From Sphingomonas sp. (GTDB taxonomy: Bacteria > Pseudomonadota > Alphaproteobacteria > Sphingomonadales > Sphingomonadaceae), in assembly GCA_017849555.1 (NCBI GenBank), contig JAFIGU010000095.1, positions 38,942 through 102,941 of the forward strand: a stretch of DNA of 64,000 bases, read 5' to 3'. The notes beneath the pieces were generated by a model, which had not been told where the DNA came from, did not search any database, and was given only the letters and a program-made list of their open reading frames with translations. The translations under genes were made by a program, and so were the position numbers. This document shows, piece by piece, positions 1,138 through 11,554 of the stretch. Position 1 is the first letter of the stretch. Every line of letters begins with the position of its first letter.

Positions 1138-1965
1138 ATGACGCGGCTGTTCGTCTTCGGTCTCGGCTACGCCGCGCGCGCGATCACCGCGGCGAGCGGC
1201 GCGCCCACACTGGGGACGACACGCGACGGGCGCGACGGGACGATCCGCTTCGACGATGCGGATGCGGTGCGCGCCGGGATGGCGACGGCGACGCATGTGC
1301 TATCCTCCGTCCCGCCCGACGAGAGCGGTGCCGACCCGGTGCTGACGCGATATCGCGAGCTGCTCGGCGGGCGCTGGCTCGGCTATCTCTCCTCGACCGG
1401 GGTCTATGGCGACACCGGCGGCGCATGGGTCGACGAGACCGCGCCGGTCGGCGGCGGGCGGCGCGCGGCGCGCACAGGGGCGGATGCCGCGTGGCTGGCG
1501 ATCGGCGCGCGGGTGTTCCGCCTCCCCGGTATCTACGGGCCGGGGCGGTCGCCGCTTGACCGGCTGCGTGCCGGCACGGCGCATCGCATCGTCCTGCCGG
1601 GGCAGGTGTTCAGCCGCGTGCATGTCGCCGATATCGCACGCGGGGTGATCGCGGGATTCGCGGCACCGGCGGGGGCGTATAATCTCGCCGACGATCTGCC
1701 GGCCGGGCAGGACGAGGTGCTGGCCTATGCCGCGGCGCTGATCGGCCTGCCGCCACCGCCGGTCGTGCCGCTCGACATCCTCGGCCCCGCCGCGCGCGGT
1801 TTCTATGCCGAGAACCGCCGCGTCGCCAACGGCAAGGCGAAGCGCGTGCTCGGCTGGGCGCCGCTCTACCCCGATTACCGCGTCGGCCTGCGCGCGGTGA
1901 GCGCGATGACCAGCCCGATCCCGGCGAGCACCCCGCCGCCGATCGCCAGCGTCGACCAGCGATAG
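1138..1965 (+). CDS. NAD(P)-dependent epimerase/SDR family protein
   Basis: Extended-type short-chain dehydrogenase/reductase of 275 residues. The N-terminus has a Rossmann-like VFGLGYAARAI. A YLSSTGVYGD strand-turn follows at about residue 90, then FRLPGIYGPGRSPLDRL and a conserved FSRVHVADIARG. It resembles the YeeZ-like sugar-nucleotide-epimerase-related group; the substrate is unknown. I do not see a clear catalytic YxxxK pair, which may mean a non-classical or non-catalytic role. It starts one base after the M28 gene. The 3' end runs 91 bases into the convergent EamA gene, so its last 25 or so residues (low-complexity Ser/Pro) are encoded antisense to a transporter C-terminus and look like an extension past the natural family end near RVGLRAV. 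Confidence 0.75.
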   Translation: MTRLFVFGLGYAARAITAASGAPTLGTTRDGRDGTIRFDDADAVRAGMATATHVLSSVPPDESGADPVLTRYRELLGGRWLGYLSSTGVYGDTGGAWVDETAPVGGGRRAARTGADAAWLAIGARVFRLPGIYGPGRSPLDRLRAGTAHRIVLPGQVFSRVHVADIARGVIAGFAAPAGAYNLADDLPAGQDEVLAYAAALIGLPPPPVVPLDILGPAARGFYAENRRVANGKAKRVLGWAPLYPDYRVGLRAVSAMTSPIPASTPPPIASVDQR

Positions 1966-2792
1966 CCCTCGAACACGGTCGACAGCAGCATCGCGATGAC
2001 GGGCACGATCACGCTCGAATAGGCCGCCTTGGCCGGGCCGATCGCGCGGATCACGCGGAAATAGAGCGGGAAGCACAAGGCCGAGGCCGCGAGCCCAAGA
2101 TAAAGCGTCCCCGCAACATAGCCCAGCCGCCATTCGAACACCGGCGGCCCCGTGGTGATCCACGCCCAGGCTGCGTCGAGCCCGGACCCGATCAGCATCG
2201 CCACCGCCAAGGTCGGCACCATCGGATAGCGCGTCGCGACCGAGGTCGCCTGCATCACATTGGCGGTCGAGGCGGAGAGGATCGCGCAGCAGGTAAGCGC
2301 GATCCCGATCAGCGCCGCGCCCGGGCCGTGCGGATCGCTGCGCGCTTCGTTGATGAACAGGAGCACCACCCCGGCCATCGCGATCCCCGAGCCGATCACG
2401 AGCTGCCGCCCGAGCTTCTGCCCGAGGAAGATGCGCGCGAACACGGCATTGGGCACCAGCAGCAGCGCGAACACCACCGCCACCAGCCCCGATGTGATAT
2501 GCTGCTCGGCGCGATAGACGAAATTGAAGTTGAGCACGAATTGCGCGAGCCCCAGCGCCGCCGCGAAGGCCCAGCCGCGCGCGTCGAAGGTGAAACGCTC
2601 GCGCGTCGCCAGCCCCCAGACGAGCATCGCGACGCCCGCGACGAGGAAGCGATAGCTGACCGACCAGCTCGGCGGGACGACGCTCAGCTGATCGCGGATC
2701 ACCAGCCAGGTCGATCCCCAGATCAAGGTGACGATCGCGAATGGGATGAGGACGGCGGCGCGGGTCGAATTGGGGCGGGTCGCGTCGCTCAT
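1875..2792 (-). CDS. EamA/DMT-family transporter
   Basis: Ten-helix drug/metabolite-superfamily permease of 305 residues in the inner membrane. Two EamA repeats are visible: the first from IPFAIVTLIWGSTWLVIRDQ (about residue 15), the second from about residue 155, ending in GGVLAGIGLVIALTARR. The WGSTWLVI motif is typical of RhaT/YdcZ-like DMT exporters. The substrate cannot be read from sequence. No strong Shine-Dalgarno precedes the ATG. Its 3' end overlaps the convergent SDR gene by 91 bases. Unlike the second EamA gene of the window, its upstream region carries only an intergenic inverted repeat and no riboswitch-like element. Confidence 0.85.
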   Translation of the reverse strand: MSDATRPNSTRAAVLIPFAIVTLIWGSTWLVIRDQLSVVPPSWSVSYRFLVAGVAMLVWGLATRERFTFDARGWAFAAALGLAQFVLNFNFVYRAEQHITSGLVAVVFALLLVPNAVFARIFLGQKLGRQLVIGSGIAMAGVVLLFINEARSDPHGPGAALIGIALTCCAILSASTANVMQATSVATRYPMVPTLAVAMLIGSGLDAAWAWITTGPPVFEWRLGYVAGTLYLGLAASALCFPLYFRVIRAIGPAKAAYSSVIVPVIAMLLSTVFEGYRWSTLAIGGGVLAGIGLVIALTARRPTR

Positions 2793-7724: not shown

Positions 7725-8600
7725 CTACCCCGCCGACAGGAAGACCACCCCGCCGATCAGCACGCCGCATCCCACCAGCCGCCACGGCCCGACCCTCTCG
7801 TGCAGGATCAGCATCCCCATCAGCGCGCCGACCATCATCGACATCTCGCGCATCGGCGCGACGAGGCTGAGCGGCGCGCCCGAGCCGAGCGCCGCGAGCA
7901 CGAGGATATAGGACAAGGGCGACAGCAGCCCGACCCCGATCGCGAACCGCCAATAGCCGCGCATCGCCGCCAGCGCGCGGCGCGGATCGGCGATCACCAG
8001 CGGCGAGAGCAGAAAGAAGCGCAGCAGGTTCGAGAACCAGTCGAGCATCACCGGGACGATGCCGAGCGTCTTGACCGCATAAGCGTCGACCACCGTATAG
8101 GTTGCGATCAGCCCGCCGGTCGCGCTGCCCCAGCGCACCCCCGCCTGCCCGCCGGGCCGGCGAAAGGCGGAAAGATCGCCCTGCGTCGCGATTAGCCCGA
8201 TCCCCGCCACGACGAGGATCAACCCGAGCACCCCCAACCCCGACGGCCGCTCGCCGAGGATCAGGAACGCGCCGATCGTCGACAGCATCGGCCCCGTCCC
8301 CCGCGCGACGGGATAGACCACCGAGAGATCGGCGACCTGATAGCCGCGCTGCAGGCACAGGCTGTAGCCGAGGTGGATCAGCGCGCTGAGCAGGACGAAG
8401 GCGGCGCCCACGCCGGTCCACGCCGTCCCGCGGCCCGCGATCACCAGATAGACCACCCACGGCGCATAAGCGACGCACGCGACCAGATTATAGGCGAAGA
8501 CGAACACCGGGCCGACCGCCGCGGCGCGCTTGGCGAGCAGGTTCCACGTCGCATGGACGAGCGACGCGAGCACGACGAGCAGCAATGAGGCAAATGTCAT
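7725..8600 (-). CDS. EamA/DMT-family transporter under ykkC-type riboswitch
   Basis: Ten-helix DMT permease of 291 residues with two EamA repeats. It starts MTFASLLLVVLASLVHATWN, a form seen in EamA exporters, and ends LVGCGVLIGGVVFLSAG. The ATG at 8600 has a perfect AGGAGG five bases upstream, which lies inside a predicted hairpin (8601-8626). The leader upstream contains a ykkC-family aptamer, so expression is probably switched by a small ligand, guanidine being the leading candidate. That would make this a candidate guanidine (or related cation) exporter, not one of the usual small-multidrug-resistance (Gdx/SugE) proteins. No other gene shares the transcript on this strand. Substrate is inferred from the leader alone. 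Confidence 0.85.
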   Translation of the reverse strand: MTFASLLLVVLASLVHATWNLLAKRAAAVGPVFVFAYNLVACVAYAPWVVYLVIAGRGTAWTGVGAAFVLLSALIHLGYSLCLQRGYQVADLSVVYPVARGTGPMLSTIGAFLILGERPSGLGVLGLILVVAGIGLIATQGDLSAFRRPGGQAGVRWGSATGGLIATYTVVDAYAVKTLGIVPVMLDWFSNLLRFFLLSPLVIADPRRALAAMRGYWRFAIGVGLLSPLSYILVLAALGSGAPLSLVAPMREMSMMVGALMGMLILHERVGPWRLVGCGVLIGGVVFLSAG

Positions 8601-8626
8601 CGAGACCTCCTGATTGGTCGATCTCG
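8601..8626 (-). promoter_or_regulatory. Putative expression platform: hairpin covering the Shine-Dalgarno
   Basis: On the minus strand CGAGATC (8626-8620) can pair with GGTCTCG (8607-8601), seven pairs including one G-T wobble, around a loop holding most of AGGAGG. The last two bases of the ribosome site are thus in the stem and the ATG follows at once. It lies between the aptamer and the start codon, which suggests translational control. Confidence 0.55.
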
Positions 8627-8735
8627 ACGTCTCCGCCTCTGGGCTTTTATCCCTCGGGTGCAGCCGCGGAGCACCCGCGGTTTCTGCAACGCTCGGTCCA
8701 GCGGCGGCAAAGCGCCCGGAACCCTAGTTGCCATT
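8627..8735 (-). promoter_or_regulatory. ykkC-family riboswitch aptamer (guanidine-I-like)
   Basis: Read on the minus strand, the leader of the EamA gene holds the conserved blocks of the ykkC class in order: ACTAGGGTTCCG (8729-8718), CTGGACCGAGCG (8701-8690), then GAGGGATAAAAGCCC (8655-8641). Between the last two is a hairpin with TGCAG / CTGCA and CCGCGG / CCGCGG arms, a three-A bulge and a GTGCT loop. The first block is followed by a GGCG / CGCC hairpin. The TAGGGTTCCG and GGGATAAAAGCCC blocks are the hallmark of the class. Subtype (guanidine, ppGpp, PRPP or nucleotide) cannot be settled by eye; a transporter as the only downstream gene favours guanidine. Confidence 0.88.
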
Positions 8736-8798
8736 CGGTCGATGAGCGGCCCCTAGCCGATCCGTGCGATCGCGATCAAGCGCGGTGCTATCCACCAC

Positions 8799-8859
8799 CC
8801 CGGCGCAGGCCGGGGTCCAGTTACGACCGCTCCGATGCTGGACCCCGGCCTACGCCGGG
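8799..8859. repeat. Long intergenic inverted repeat
   Basis: Two 22-base arms (8799-8820 and 8838-8859) are complementary except for one position, around a 17-base centre. The core reads GGCCGGGGTCCAG. The rest of the 400-base gap 8601-9000 holds the riboswitch leader on the left and a small hairpin before rpiB on the right; I see nothing else in it. Confidence 0.75.
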
Positions 8860-8955
8860 TCGCAGCGAGCCATAGGCAGCGTGACCGTCGCTTCAAATTT
8901 CCTAATCCCATGCCGCGCCACGCTATCAGCGGTGGCATTCGCCGCATCACGCGTC

Positions 8956-8985
8956 TAAAGGCGCGGGCATCCGTCCACGCCTTTA
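8956..8985 (+). other. Hairpin just upstream of rpiB
   Basis: TAAAGGCG (8956-8963) and CGCCTTTA (8978-8985) form an eight-base inverted repeat ending 15 bases before the rpiB start. It may be a leader hairpin, an operator or a remnant of a repeat. No clear promoter elements were recognised beside it. Confidence 0.35.
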
Positions 8986-9000
8986 TGGAAAGCGCCCCCG

Positions 9001-9444
9001 ATGCGCATCGCTATCGCGTCCGATCACGCCGCCGTCGAGCTCAAGTCCATGCTCGCCGACTGGCTGCGCGAGGCCGGGCATGACGTGCTCGATCTCGGCA
9101 CCAACGGCAGCGCGAGCGTCGACTATCCCGATTTCGGCCATGCGGTGGGCGCGGCGCTGGCCGACGGCCGCGTCGAGCGCGGCGTGGTATTGTGCGGCTC
9201 CGGGGTCGGCATCTCGATCGCGGCGAACCGCAACCCGGCATGCCGCTGCGCGCTGGTCAGCGAGCCGCTCTCCGCGCGTCTCGCGCGCCAGCATAACGAC
9301 GCCAATGCGATCGCGATGGGCGCGCGGCTGATCGGCCCGGAAATGGCCAAGGCCTGCCTCGAGGCGTTCCTCTCGACCGATTTCGAGGGCGGCCGCCACC
9401 AGCACCGCATCGACAAGCTTTCCGTCCGCCTCACGGCTGCATAA
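9001..9444 (+). CDS. rpiB: Ribose-5-phosphate isomerase B
   Basis: Interconverts ribose 5-phosphate and ribulose 5-phosphate in the pentose phosphate pathway. The 147-residue protein matches the RpiB/LacAB family from the first residue: [31 protein letters not shown], and the active-site [13 protein letters not shown] with the catalytic Cys, then [17 protein letters not shown]. Length is usual for the family. It is the first gene of a tight set with glyA (15-base gap), a small glycine-rich protein, nrdR and trmJ, all on the plus strand, an order common in sphingomonads. No regulatory site was recognised apart from the hairpin at 8956-8985. Confidence 0.95.
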
Positions 9445-9459
9445 CCAAGGAGTCTCGCG

Positions 9460-10767
9460 ATGAGCACGAACCCCGCCAATCTCAATGATGTGCAGCCGGA
9501 CGGCTTCTTCACCCGCGGCCTTGCCGACGCCGATCCGGCGGTGTTCAAGGGCGTCGCCCACGAGCTGGAGCGCGAGCAGACCCAGATCGAGCTGATCGCC
9601 TCCGAGAATATCGTCTCCAAGGCGGTGCTCGAAGCGCAGGGCAGCGTCTTCACCAACAAATATGCCGAGGGTTATCCCGGCAAGCGCTACTATCAGGGCT
9701 GCCACCCGTCGGACGAGGTCGAGCAGCTCGCGATCGACCGCGCCAAGGCGCTGTTCGGCTGCAACTTCGCCAACGTCCAGCCGCATTCGGGCGCGCAGGC
9801 CAATGGCGCGGTGATGCTGGCGCTGACCAAGCCCGGCGACACGATCATGGGGCTGAGCCTCGATGCCGGCGGCCATTTGACCCACGGCGCCAAGGCGGCG
9901 ATGTCGGGCAAATGGTTCAACGCGGTGCAATATGGCGTGACGCCGGACACGCATCTGATCGATTACGATCAGGTCGAGGCGCTCGCGCTCGAACATAAGC
10001 CGACGCTGATCATCACCGGCGGCTCGGCCTATCCGCGCGTGATCGATTTCGCCCGCTTCCGCGCGATCGCCGACAAGGTCGGCGCCAAGTTCATGGTCGA
10101 TATGGCGCATTTCGCGGGGATCGTCGCGGGCGGGCTGCATCCCTCGCCGTTCGAGCATGCCGATGTCGTCACCACCACCACCCACAAGACGCTGCGCGGC
10201 CCGCGCGGCGGGATGGTGATGACCAATGACGAGGCGATCGCCAAGAAGATCAACTCGGCGGTGTTCCCGGGGCTGCAGGGCGGCCCGCTGATGCACGTCA
10301 TCGCCGCCAAGGCGGTGGCGTTCGGCGAGGCGCTGCGCCCCGACTATAAGAGCTATATCGCCGCGGTGGTGGAAAACGCCAAGGTGCTGGCCGCGACGCT
10401 CAAGGAGCGCGGCTGCAACCTCGTCTCGGGCGGCACCGACACGCATCTCGCGCTGGTCGACCTGACCCCGCTCGGGGTGACCGGCAAGGACGCCGACGAG
10501 GCGCTCGAGCGCGCCGGGATCACCTGCAACAAGAACGGCATCCCCAACGATCCGCTCCCCCCGATGAAGACCAGCGGGATCCGCGTCGGCTCCCCCGCGG
10601 GCACCACGCGCGGCTTCGGCGCCGCCGAATTCCGCGAGATCGGCAATATGGTTGCGGACGTACTGGACGGCCTCGCCAAGAACGGCGAAGCTGGCGATGC
10701 GCAGGTCGAGGCGCATGTTCGGGAACGAGTACGCGCCTTGTGCGCTCGTTTCCCGATCTATCAGTGA
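9460..10767 (+). CDS. glyA: Serine hydroxymethyltransferase
   Basis: PLP enzyme converting serine and tetrahydrofolate to glycine and methylene-tetrahydrofolate, the main one-carbon source in the cytoplasm. The 435-residue protein is full length. Visible hallmarks are [19 protein letters not shown], the glycine-loop [14 protein letters not shown], and the cofactor-binding lysine in [15 protein letters not shown] strong AAGGAG ribosome site precedes the ATG by a suitable distance. It lies 15 bases after rpiB and 10 bases before a small ORF, so cotranscription is likely. Nothing unusual in the active site was noticed. Confidence 0.97.
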
Positions 10768-10777
10768 GGGCGTAAAG

Positions 10778-10954
10778 ATGTCGAAGATCGACGAAGTGCA
10801 GGAAACCGTCCGCAACACCCCCGGCCTCGGCCGGAAAATGGCGAAATACGGCGCGATCGGCGCGGTATTGGCGATCCCCTTGCCCTTCGTCGGCCCGGTC
10901 ATCGGCGCGGTGGTCGGCGCCGGCGTCGCCTACGCGCGCCGCGATAAGAACTGA
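10778..10954 (+). CDS. Small glycine-zipper membrane protein, hypothetical
   Basis: A 58-residue protein starting at the ATG ten bases after glyA. The N-terminal 20 residues are charged (MSKIDEVQETVRN), followed by KYGAIGAVLAIPLPFVGPV and GAVVGAGVAYARR: a glycine-zipper hairpin able to span the membrane, ending in a basic tail. The spacing and codon use fit a real gene of the rpiB-glyA operon. I do not recognise a family function. The same frame is open upstream inside glyA, but the proper start is the ATG at 10778. A family A repeat follows directly after it. Confidence 0.65.
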   Translation: MSKIDEVQETVRNTPGLGRKMAKYGAIGAVLAIPLPFVGPVIGAVVGAGVAYARRDKN

Positions 10955-10973
10955 GCTATGCCTCTCCCATCCT

Positions 10974-11054
10974 CCGTTCGGGCTGAGCTTGTCGAAGCCC
11001 TGCACTTTCTTCCGATGAAGAAGGGCAGCCCTTCGACAGGCTCAGGGCGAACGG
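10974..11054. repeat. Intergenic inverted repeat, family A copy 2
   Basis: Begins CCGTTCGGGCTGAGCTTGTC, has a CTTTCTTCCGATGAAG centre and ends GGCTCAGGGCGAACGG. It is the best-preserved copy, lying between the glycine-zipper gene and nrdR inside a likely operon, so it would be part of the transcript and could fold. Confidence 0.85.
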
Positions 11055-11092
11055 GAGAGGGTGCTGCTTCTTCCTTCGAGGGCGCGAACTGA

Positions 11093-11554
11093 ATGCGCTG
11101 CCCGTTCTGCGGCCATGATGCGAGCCAGGTAAAGGATAGCCGCCCGACCGACGACGGCGCGGCGATCCGTCGGCGTCGCCAGTGCGAGGGGTGCGCGGCG
11201 CGCTTCACCACCTTCGAGCGGATCCAGCTGCGCGAATTGGTGGTGGTCAAGAGCAACGACCGCCGCGAACCGTTCGACCGCGAGAAGCTGATCCGCTCGA
11301 TCGGCATCGCCGCGCGCAAGCGCCAGCTCGACGGGATCGCGATCGAGCGGCTCGTCTCGGGCATCCAGCGCCAGCTCGAAACCTCGGGCGAAGGCGAAGT
11401 GACCTCGAAGCGGATCGGCGAAATGGTGATGGACGGGCTCAAGGGGCTCGATTCGGTCGCCTATATCCGCTTTGCCTCGGTCTATCGCGATTTCAACGAG
11501 GCGAAGGATTTCGAGGAATTCGCCGGCACGGTCGAGGAAGCCGGCCGCGGATGA
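11093..11554 (+). CDS. nrdR: Transcriptional repressor NrdR
   Basis: Zinc-ribbon and ATP-cone repressor of ribonucleotide reductase genes, 153 residues, the usual length. The ribbon is MRCPFCGHD with a second [13 protein letters not shown] pair, giving the four zinc cysteines. The ATP cone begins near residue 50 with [20 protein letters not shown]. The C-terminal [20 protein letters not shown] is highly conserved in the family. The start is the ATG next to the ribbon. Its stop overlaps the trmJ start (ATGA at 11551-11554), so the pair is translationally linked. Target NrdR boxes are not in this window as far as I can see. Confidence 0.97.

What the first reader, a model, noticed from the sequence alone, without database searches (positions are those of the whole stretch)
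8627..8735. ykkC-family riboswitch controlling an EamA transporter instead of a Gdx/SMR exporter
The leader on the minus strand has the class-defining blocks in order (ACTAGGGTTCCG, CTGGACCGAGCG, GGGATAAAAGCCC). Guanidine-I members usually control SMR exporters, carboxylases or ABC systems. An EamA permease as sole target suggests a guanidine or related-cation exporter from a different family, or another ykkC subtype with a different ligand.
Basis: partly seen in the sequence, partly recalled or inferred. Interest (0 to 1): 0.8.

Follow-up and report, generated by a model that had tools for sequence, protein, structure and literature searches.

The report
Orphan ykkC riboswitch before EamA transporter
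A short RNA switch of the ykkC family sits in front of a membrane-transporter gene in a Sphingomonas-type bacterium; such pairs were already known, their trigger molecule is not, and the sequences gathered here suggest a phosphate-bearing trigger rather than guanidine.

Summary
Window 8743-8624 (minus) is a ykkC-type aptamer; an EamA gene (7725-8600) starts 23 nt further on. Rfam Guanidine-I matches at 50.4 bits, E 4.9e-8, under the gathering score of 63. It is not guanidine-I: the position that is A there is C, the published mark of subtype 2. EamA as target is not new: a 2018 paper and a 2020 review describe 'ykkC subtype 2d', ligand unknown. Ligand and transported compound are untested.

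The parts
8624..8743 (-). complete ykkC subtype-2 aptamer including the closing helix P0
   Evidence: RF00442 hit 8635-8738; alignment A1 and pair counts; R1 match 8615-8747, 157.6 bits (the window leader is in the training set as L001)
8738..8742 (-). P0 5' strand UCGAC
   Evidence: paired with the 3' strand in 25 of 25 distinct group-A leaders, one compensatory change
8624..8628 (-). P0 3' strand GUCGA; its last two bases also start the strand complementary to the RBS region
8686..8731 (-). P1, P1a, P1b and P2 hairpin, with CTAGGGTTCCG and CTGGACCGAGCG
   Evidence: covariation; C at 8691 is the position that is A46 in guanidine-I
8641..8680 (-). P3 stem, CACC strand (8660-8657, equivalent to C75-C78 of the PRPP aptamer) and loop GGGATAAAAGCCC
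   Evidence: equivalence is my alignment to residues named in PMC6031431
8639..8639 (-). G equivalent to G96 of the PRPP aptamer, pairing with the C75 equivalent at 8660
   Evidence: pair invariant in 25 of 25; same C75-G96 distance (21 positions) as in the PRPP numbering
8620..8625 (-). GAGAUC strand, complementary to GGUCUC at the RBS (predicted OFF state)
8602..8611 (-). Shine-Dalgarno AGGAGG (8611-8606) and masking partner GGUCUC (8607-8602)
7725..8600 (-). EamA (DMT superfamily) transporter gene, 291 aa, ATG start
   Evidence: PF00892; TIGR03340 phn_DUF6 110.8 bits, below its cut-off 288.15; model pLDDT 89.7 and DMT fold matches

Best explanation
The element is a ykkC subtype-2 riboswitch of the EamA-associated orphan kind (published label 2d) that turns ON translation of one EamA exporter gene. 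Shown by sequence comparison: ykkC fold, P0, subtype-2 pocket marks, EamA downstream, and overlap of the P0 3' strand with a strand complementary to the ribosome-binding site. Inferred: without ligand, GUCGAGAUC pairs with GGUCUCGAU and masks the Shine-Dalgarno guanines and the start codon; a ligand held between P3 and P0 stabilises P0, takes GUCGA away from that hairpin and lets ribosomes start. Inferred with less certainty: the ligand is a phosphorylated anion (sugar-phosphate or nucleotide-like), and EamA exports it or a compound that builds up with it.
For: Rfam match E 4.9e-8. C at the A46/C49 position and G at the G96 position (meaning from PMC6031431). Covariation on 25 distinct leaders: 98.6% of cells paired, 15 pairs with changes on both sides against 3.8 in shuffles, 0 of 500. 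P0: paired in 25 of 25 in group A; in group B one P0 pair is U-A in 13 and C-G in 11 of 24 rows without a mismatch; in group C mean longest run 5.4 against 4.4 shuffled, 14 of 500 as high. RBS masking: in 20 of 22 distinct group-A leaders at least 6 of the 9 nt before the start codon are paired in the fold of the isolated segment. In the window, forcing P0 dissolves the masking hairpin and raises the unpaired chance of the AUG bases from 0.00-0.02 to 0.22-0.32. No terminator-like site in 8560-9020. Downstream EamA in 5 of 5 RF00442 hits among 120 genomes searched and in 8 of 8 R1 hits among 295 genomes of the genus.
Against: No binding or expression data. Energy: with P1, P2 and P3 in place, adding P0 costs 13.7 kcal/mol (MFE -66.9 to -53.2), the full aptamer with the single C75-G96 pair lies 30 kcal/mol above the free fold (-43.4 against -73.8), and the mean unpaired chance over AGGAGG hardly changes (0.39 to 0.41) because coding sequence re-pairs with it; tertiary contacts, ligand and folding during transcription are not in that model. 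The leader as a whole is no more stable than shuffles (z -1.07). P0 in group A is nearly invariant (1 of 5 pairs with a compensatory change, in L066), and L143 and L144 each break one P0 pair. L033 and L066 lack the conserved masking stem (0.44 paired). Anionic ligand: the transporter also has invariant acidic residues (D172, E252, E268), so a cation is not excluded. Nothing in the neighbourhood points to a pathway.
Confidence: 0.55

Rival explanations
1. The ligand is a small toxic cation akin to guanidine, and EamA is its exporter (the proposal of Sherlock et al. 2018 for subtype 2d).
For: Published argument: 2d consensus most like guanidine-I, and a target in the superfamily of guanidine transporters (PMC5912903 discussion, passage). 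SMR models match the EamA protein weakly (17-19 bits). A choline (cation) importer, LicB, has the highest TM-score among the listed structures (0.79).
Against: A46 replaced by C; P0 present, which PMC6031431 describes as absent from guanidine-I and as part of the pocket for PRPP. With the group-A model guanidine-I loci score 32-41 bits, no higher than three group-B loci (39-41) and within the ppGpp range (25-47), below PRPP-type loci (43-70). RF00442 scores the window under one locus each of 2a, 2b and 2c type (50.4 against 62.8, 58.3, 62.3).
Confidence: 0.2
2. Group A simply senses PRPP (or an NDP) like subtypes 2b/2c, with an exporter as an unusual target.
For: The group-A model gives its best scores outside group A to two PRPP-type loci (70.2 and 69.5 bits). 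The equivalents of G48, C49, C75-C78, G96 and G104 are kept in the window.
Against: The reciprocal test does not bear it out: a PRPP-type model gives 2c-type loci 96-100 and ppGpp-type loci 57-95 bits but the window 49.6 and other group-A members 16-55. The G105 equivalent is A (as it is in PRPP-type loci before xpt-like genes), P0 is shifted, and the 5' tail differs. The target is not a purine gene.
Confidence: 0.18
3. The leader is a decayed ykkC copy without function.
For: Rfam score under the gathering threshold. Rare: 8 of 295 genomes of the genus. One genus member, L144, looks degenerate.
Against: The 25 distinct leaders, the window's among them, share long invariant stretches outside the two blocks that my search pattern required, across Sphingomonadales, Rhizobiales and Rhodobacterales names, while P2 and P3 vary with compensation.
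Confidence: 0.04

Closest known systems
ykkC subtype 2d (orphan; EamA/phn_DUF6 and TauE genes)
   Same: ykkC fold, subtype-2 mark, sole EamA target of the phn_DUF6 kind
   Different: The published text names extra conserved tails for 2a-2c and says 2d is most like guanidine-I; group A has tails and P0 and is not closest to guanidine-I. The published 2d consensus figure was not available here.
PRPP riboswitch (ykkC subtype 2b)
   Same: P0, C49, C75-G96 pair, CACC strand; published as an ON switch, as proposed here
   Different: target gene, shifted P0, different 5' tail, translational instead of terminator platform, low reciprocal model score
NDP riboswitch (2c) and ppGpp riboswitch (2a)
   Same: ykkC fold with tails and pyrimidine at 49
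   Different: the ppGpp class lacks G96; loci of both types side with 2b rather than with group A and precede other genes
Guanidine-I riboswitch (RF00442, subtype 1)
   Same: overall P1-P2-P3 architecture
   Different: A46 is C here, P0 present, score below gathering
EamA / DMT superfamily (YddG, LicB, triose-phosphate and nucleotide-sugar transporters)
   Same: ten-helix DMT fold
   Different: sequence identity 10-17% in the 36 structure matches at E up to 0.001; substrate unknown

Membership tests
ykkC motif (superfamily) | conserved P1/P2/P3 fold with the three sequence blocks | tested here: met
   full-length match; covariation
Guanidine-I riboswitch | adenosine at the A46 position | tested here: not met
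   C at window 8691. The pattern demanded this C, so its loci prove nothing here; the five RF00442 hits, found without the pattern, also have it
Guanidine-I riboswitch | score over the Rfam gathering threshold | tested here: not met
   50.4 against 63 bits
ykkC subtype 2 | pyrimidine at position 49 | tested here: met
   criterion from PMC6031431
ppGpp riboswitch (2a) | no G at position 96 | tested here: not met
   G at window 8639, invariant in 25 of 25
PRPP riboswitch (2b) | G96 and P0 | tested here: met
PRPP riboswitch (2b) | purine-metabolism target gene and 2b-like sequence | tested here: not met
   EamA target; 49.6 bits with R3 against 101-120 for three PRPP-type loci, which are in or nearly identical to the training set
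PRPP/ppGpp/NDP/guanidine riboswitches | binding of the ligand | not testable with these tools
   needs in-line probing
ykkC subtype 2d | EamA (phn_DUF6) or TauE target | tested here: met
   PF00892; TIGR03340 is the best NCBIfam hit at 110.8 bits but below its cut-off 288.15
ykkC subtype 2d | match to the published 2d consensus | not testable with these tools
   consensus figure not held (papers not held; text only)
ykkC subtype 2d | consensus most similar to guanidine-I (published remark) | tested here: inconclusive
   not so for group A; with the group-B model guanidine-I loci score 20-42 and group C 46-79, but the published set may differ
Gdx/SMR guanidine exporter | short four-helix SMR protein (about 105 aa, as the SMR models; helix number recalled) | tested here: not met
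   291 aa, EamA, DMT fold with about ten long helices

The most novel reading that the evidence does not exclude
Group A is a riboswitch class of its own, separate from the other EamA-linked ykkC RNAs (B plus C) and from 2a-2c, that uses a shifted P0 to read a phosphorylated metabolite not yet known as a riboswitch ligand, and drives an exporter for it or its product.
Probability: 0.4. Interest if true: 0.75.

Novelty: new member of a known kind. Interest (0 to 1): 0.5.

Why it matters
A 2020 review names subtype 2d as the ykkC class whose ligand was still undetermined. This window gives a short, well-conserved representative from a Sphingomonas-type genome with a compact leader, narrows the ligand search from guanidine-like cations towards phosphorylated anions, and warns that the EamA-linked RNAs may be two classes, which would mislead a ligand screen that pools them. 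It would also give a first handle on the substrate of an uncharacterised exporter family.

Tried and rejected
Guanidine-I member with an odd target: rejected (C at A46, P0, low score). Phosphonate (C-P lyase) context suggested by the family name phn_DUF6: PhnJ (PF06007) is absent from 8 of 8 R1-positive genomes of the genus (the same call finds it in E. coli), so that pathway is not needed. Gene neighbours as ligand clue: beyond EamA and overlapping frames, the largest neighbour cluster touches 5 of 59 loci; rpiB recurs only in L003/L085 (one genome) and a glyA-like protein (by eye) only in L085 and L089. Nearest solved structures: Foldseek ranks the triose-phosphate translocator first by E-value (4.2e-7), but the choline importer LicB has the higher TM-score, so the fold does not tell cation from anion. 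Invariant R100 (TM4) and R251 (break in TM9) in 40 of 40 aligned proteins were considered as phosphate ligands by analogy to Lys124 of the CMP-sialic acid transporter, which contacts the alpha-phosphate (passage of PMC6508934; that it lies on TM4 is recalled); I did not map them into the cavity. Intrinsic terminator: none found. Masking of the RBS by the pocket strand, as in group B: not seen in group A (5.7 against 5.4 with shuffled RBS, 23 of 300 as high), although L066 has 10 such pairs.

Rows dropped: A1 used 25 of 27 group-A rows (2 identical). A5/R2 used 24 of 32 group-B rows (dropped: duplicates L005, L056; odd leaders L049, L078, L108; L067, L057, L102 missed by my regex, later scored 94-108 bits with R2). 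A3 used 40 proteins of the 57 found in groups A and B (dropped: duplicates, truncated or over-long frames, L123). In one search, 24 of 27 rows were matched and two (L065, L028) were in the wrong register. One search matched 11 of 12 group-C loci; 7 of 11 have a run of 5 or more pairs, L026 and L094 have 4, L070 and L092 none. In one search one of 27 group-B rows (L028) used a wrong segment and 7 of 27 show no more than 6 pairs. In one search one of five measures went against group B (further pair types 18 against 20.7 in shuffles). R3 used 12 of 14 PRPP-type rows. In one search two of 13 R1 hits (L131, L136) were not matched by my regex and not examined. L101 and L119 were put in their groups by the leader, not by the protein. 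Labels for ppGpp-, PRPP- and 2c-type loci rest on reading the downstream proteins by eye; Pfam was run on two group-C and one group-B protein.

Full report
Is it there? Yes. The minus strand between 8743 and 8624 reads AUCGAC-CGAAUG-GCAA-CUAGGGUUCCG ... CUGGACCGAGCG-UUGC ... CACC-CGAGGGAUAAAAGCCC-AGAGGCGGAGAC-GUCGA. The default Rfam scan does not list it, because the match to RF00442 Guanidine-I, 50.4 bits and E 4.9e-8, lies under the gathering score of 63. In the whole genome the same place is the only good match (E 9.4e-8; the other one E 8.86). The ATG of a 291-aa EamA gene follows after 23 further nt. Folding energy alone would not have found it (z -1.07).

What kind? Published structures give a simple key. 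In guanidine-I RNAs the position called A46 is adenosine; in 2a and 2b it is a pyrimidine (C49 in the PRPP aptamer). G96 separates PRPP from ppGpp aptamers, and a helix P0 made by the two ends is absent from guanidine-I (PMC6031431: introduction, first part of the structure section, discussion and passages read). The window has C at 8691, G at 8639 and a P0. It is therefore subtype 2, not guanidine-I. EamA targets are already in print: a 2020 review says subtype 2d RNAs control EamA (phn_DUF6) and TauE transporters and that the ligand is undetermined (PMC7266159, passages); a 2018 paper says the 2d consensus is most like guanidine-I and proposes a small, charged, toxic compound (PMC5912903, introduction and passages). 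For later reports I searched 'subtype 2d' with riboswitch (2 papers, these two), phn_DUF6 (the same two), EamA with riboswitch and Sphingomonas (none), and ykkC with riboswitch from 2019 on (40 papers, seen as listing and start of abstracts). Passages of a 2022 and a 2025 review did not name 2d. No ligand turned up, in a library that lacks most subscription journals.

Relatives. RF00442 at E 0.01 finds 5 of 120 genomes searched (the window's own included), each upstream of EamA. With five of the earlier loci, 123 loci, duplicates included, were sorted mainly by their downstream gene: 27 with an EamA close to the window's (group A), 32 with a more distant EamA of the same kind, about 31-45% identical by tblastn (group B), and 64 others, which include an EamA group (group C, 12 loci, several from Anaerolineae) and loci whose proteins read as purine, amino-acid and phosphatase genes. 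TIGR03340 phn_DUF6 is the best NCBIfam hit in 8 of 8 group A and B proteins tested of 57 found, at 111-137 bits, well under its cut-off of 288.

Fold. On 25 distinct group-A leaders the structure including P0 has 98.6% of cells paired and 15 pairs with both sides changed (3.8 in shuffles, 0 of 500 reach it; sliding the partner by one to three columns drops pairing to 27-45%). P0 of group A is paired in 25 of 25 but nearly invariant; L066 changes a G-C to A-U, while L143 and L144, found later, each break one pair. In group B P0 has another sequence and covaries openly: one pair is U-A in 13 and C-G in 11 of 24 rows with no mismatch; the whole group-B structure beats its shuffles in four of five measures and falls short in one. 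Group C shows P0 complementarity with weaker statistics (11 of 12 loci matched; mean run 5.4 against 4.4, 14 of 500; 4 of 11 have no run above 4). So EamA-linked RNAs have the kind of ends that the published text names for 2a-2c. In the PRPP aptamer P0 extends the pocket for a polyanion, and the residues named there for the 5-phosphate (G48, C49, C77, C78) have the same letters here. My residue equivalence rests on the sequence blocks and on the identical distance between C75 and G96; it is not a structure.

Two classes? Models from group A (R1), group B (R2) and PRPP-type loci (R3) were run over overlapping sets. R1: group A 86-158 bits, then PRPP-type 43-70, group C 29-69, 2c-type 45-51, ppGpp-type 25-47, guanidine-I 32-41 (66 sources), three group-B loci 39-41. 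R2: five group-B loci 94-123, group C 61-79 apart from L092 at 46.5, all else at or below 56, the window 44.1, guanidine-I 20-42 (71 sources). R3: three PRPP-type loci 101-120, 2c-type 96-100, ppGpp-type 57-95, window 49.6, other group A 16-55, B and C 35-49, guanidine-I 30-48 (63 sources). Group A is thus apart from both B plus C and 2a-2c. Training rows score high by construction; support from rows outside the training sets comes from L127, L057, L067, L102 for R2, L140, L141, L143, L144 for R1, and the 2c- and ppGpp-type loci for R3.

How it works. In group A the strand GAGAUC, which starts inside the P0 3' strand, is complementary to GGUCUC that overlaps the Shine-Dalgarno just before the start codon. 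In folds of the isolated segment 20 of 22 distinct leaders have at least 6 of the last 9 nt before the start codon paired; L033 and L066 do not (no shuffle control). Exchanges such as GAGAUC/GAUCUC, GAGACC/GGUCUC and GGGAUC/GGUCUC keep the pairing. Energies give only weak help. In the free fold of the window the four Shine-Dalgarno guanines (unpaired chance 0.00-0.29) and AUG (0.00-0.02) are masked. Forcing P0 dissolves that hairpin and raises AUG to 0.22-0.32, but the mean over AGGAGG stays at about 0.4 because coding sequence re-pairs, and with P1, P2 and P3 in place P0 costs 13.7 kcal/mol. No terminator is found. Group B reaches RBS masking by another route: its pocket strand CACCUUAAAGAC is complementary to the RBS region (mean 9.7 pairs against 6.3 with shuffled RBS, 0 of 300, 27 loci, 7 of them with 6 pairs or fewer), and L066 carries a group-A aptamer with a group-B-like RBS pairing. 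Both designs suggest an ON switch of translation. No expression was measured.

The transporter. The model (pLDDT 89.7) matches DMT transporters: triose-phosphate translocator, nucleotide-sugar transporters, SLC35B1 with ADP, LicB, YddG entry 5i20 (that 5i20 is YddG is recalled). Invariant residues in 40 of 40 sequences include R100 and R251 but also D172, E252 and E268, so the protein does not settle the charge of its substrate.

Spread. R1 finds 8 of 295 genomes of the genus, 8 of 8 before EamA, and 13 of 385 genomes drawn from the class. Of these 13 one is the window's own, one is group B, nine carry the guanidine-I letters GAGAG (two of them, L126 and L130, tested and over the RF00442 threshold) and two were not examined. 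These searches used the stricter filters, which lose weak matches. Group A is a rare, scattered element.

Verdict. Observation confirmed; interpretation partly supported. The element belongs to the known orphan kind of EamA-linked ykkC subtype-2 riboswitches. The useful new points are P0 in these RNAs, the split into two groups, and the two RBS-masking designs.

Noticed in passing
L109 5485-5600 and other group-B loci: In group B the ligand-pocket strand CACCUUAAAGAC is complementary to the ribosome-binding site, so pocket and RBS would compete directly.
   Followed up: yes
L066 130-264: A group-A aptamer in a record titled Deltaproteobacteria MAG, with a compensatory P0 change and a group-B-like RBS pairing instead of the GAGAUC/GGUCUC stem.
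   Followed up: partly
window 8788-8872: Long G+C-rich inverted repeat in the rpiB-eamA intergenic region; it draws matches to microRNA families well below their thresholds.
   Followed up: no
window about 1899-2741 (-): A second EamA frame (351 aa) lies in the same window (G000:C38:40840-41682); RF00442 has no match there.
   Followed up: no
window 9001-11554 (+): Divergent run of rpiB, glyA, a short ORF and a protein that reads like NrdR (NrdR by eye).
   Followed up: no
L107 63-248: Purine riboswitch directly before a ykkC-type aptamer, upstream of a protein that reads like PurC: the published guanine-PRPP tandem.
   Followed up: no
L020 1897-2366: T-box leader followed by a ykkC-type aptamer before a protein that reads like IlvE; PMC6031431 mentions ppGpp/T-box tandems.
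   Followed up: no
L049, L078, L108: EamA-linked ykkC leaders with unusual 3' tails (L049 Candidatus Lumbricidophila, L078 Solirubrobacterales); I left them out of the group-B model.
   Followed up: no
L144 1501-1636 (-): A divergent, possibly decaying group-A leader in the genus (86.4 bits with R1) in front of an EamA 68% identical to the window's.
   Followed up: partly
Rfam RF00442: Its gathering score of 63 leaves out the window and every non-guanidine locus tested (L020 62.8, L087 62.3, L107 58.3, L012 45.7, L106 43.5; L109 not matched at E 0.001).
   Followed up: partly
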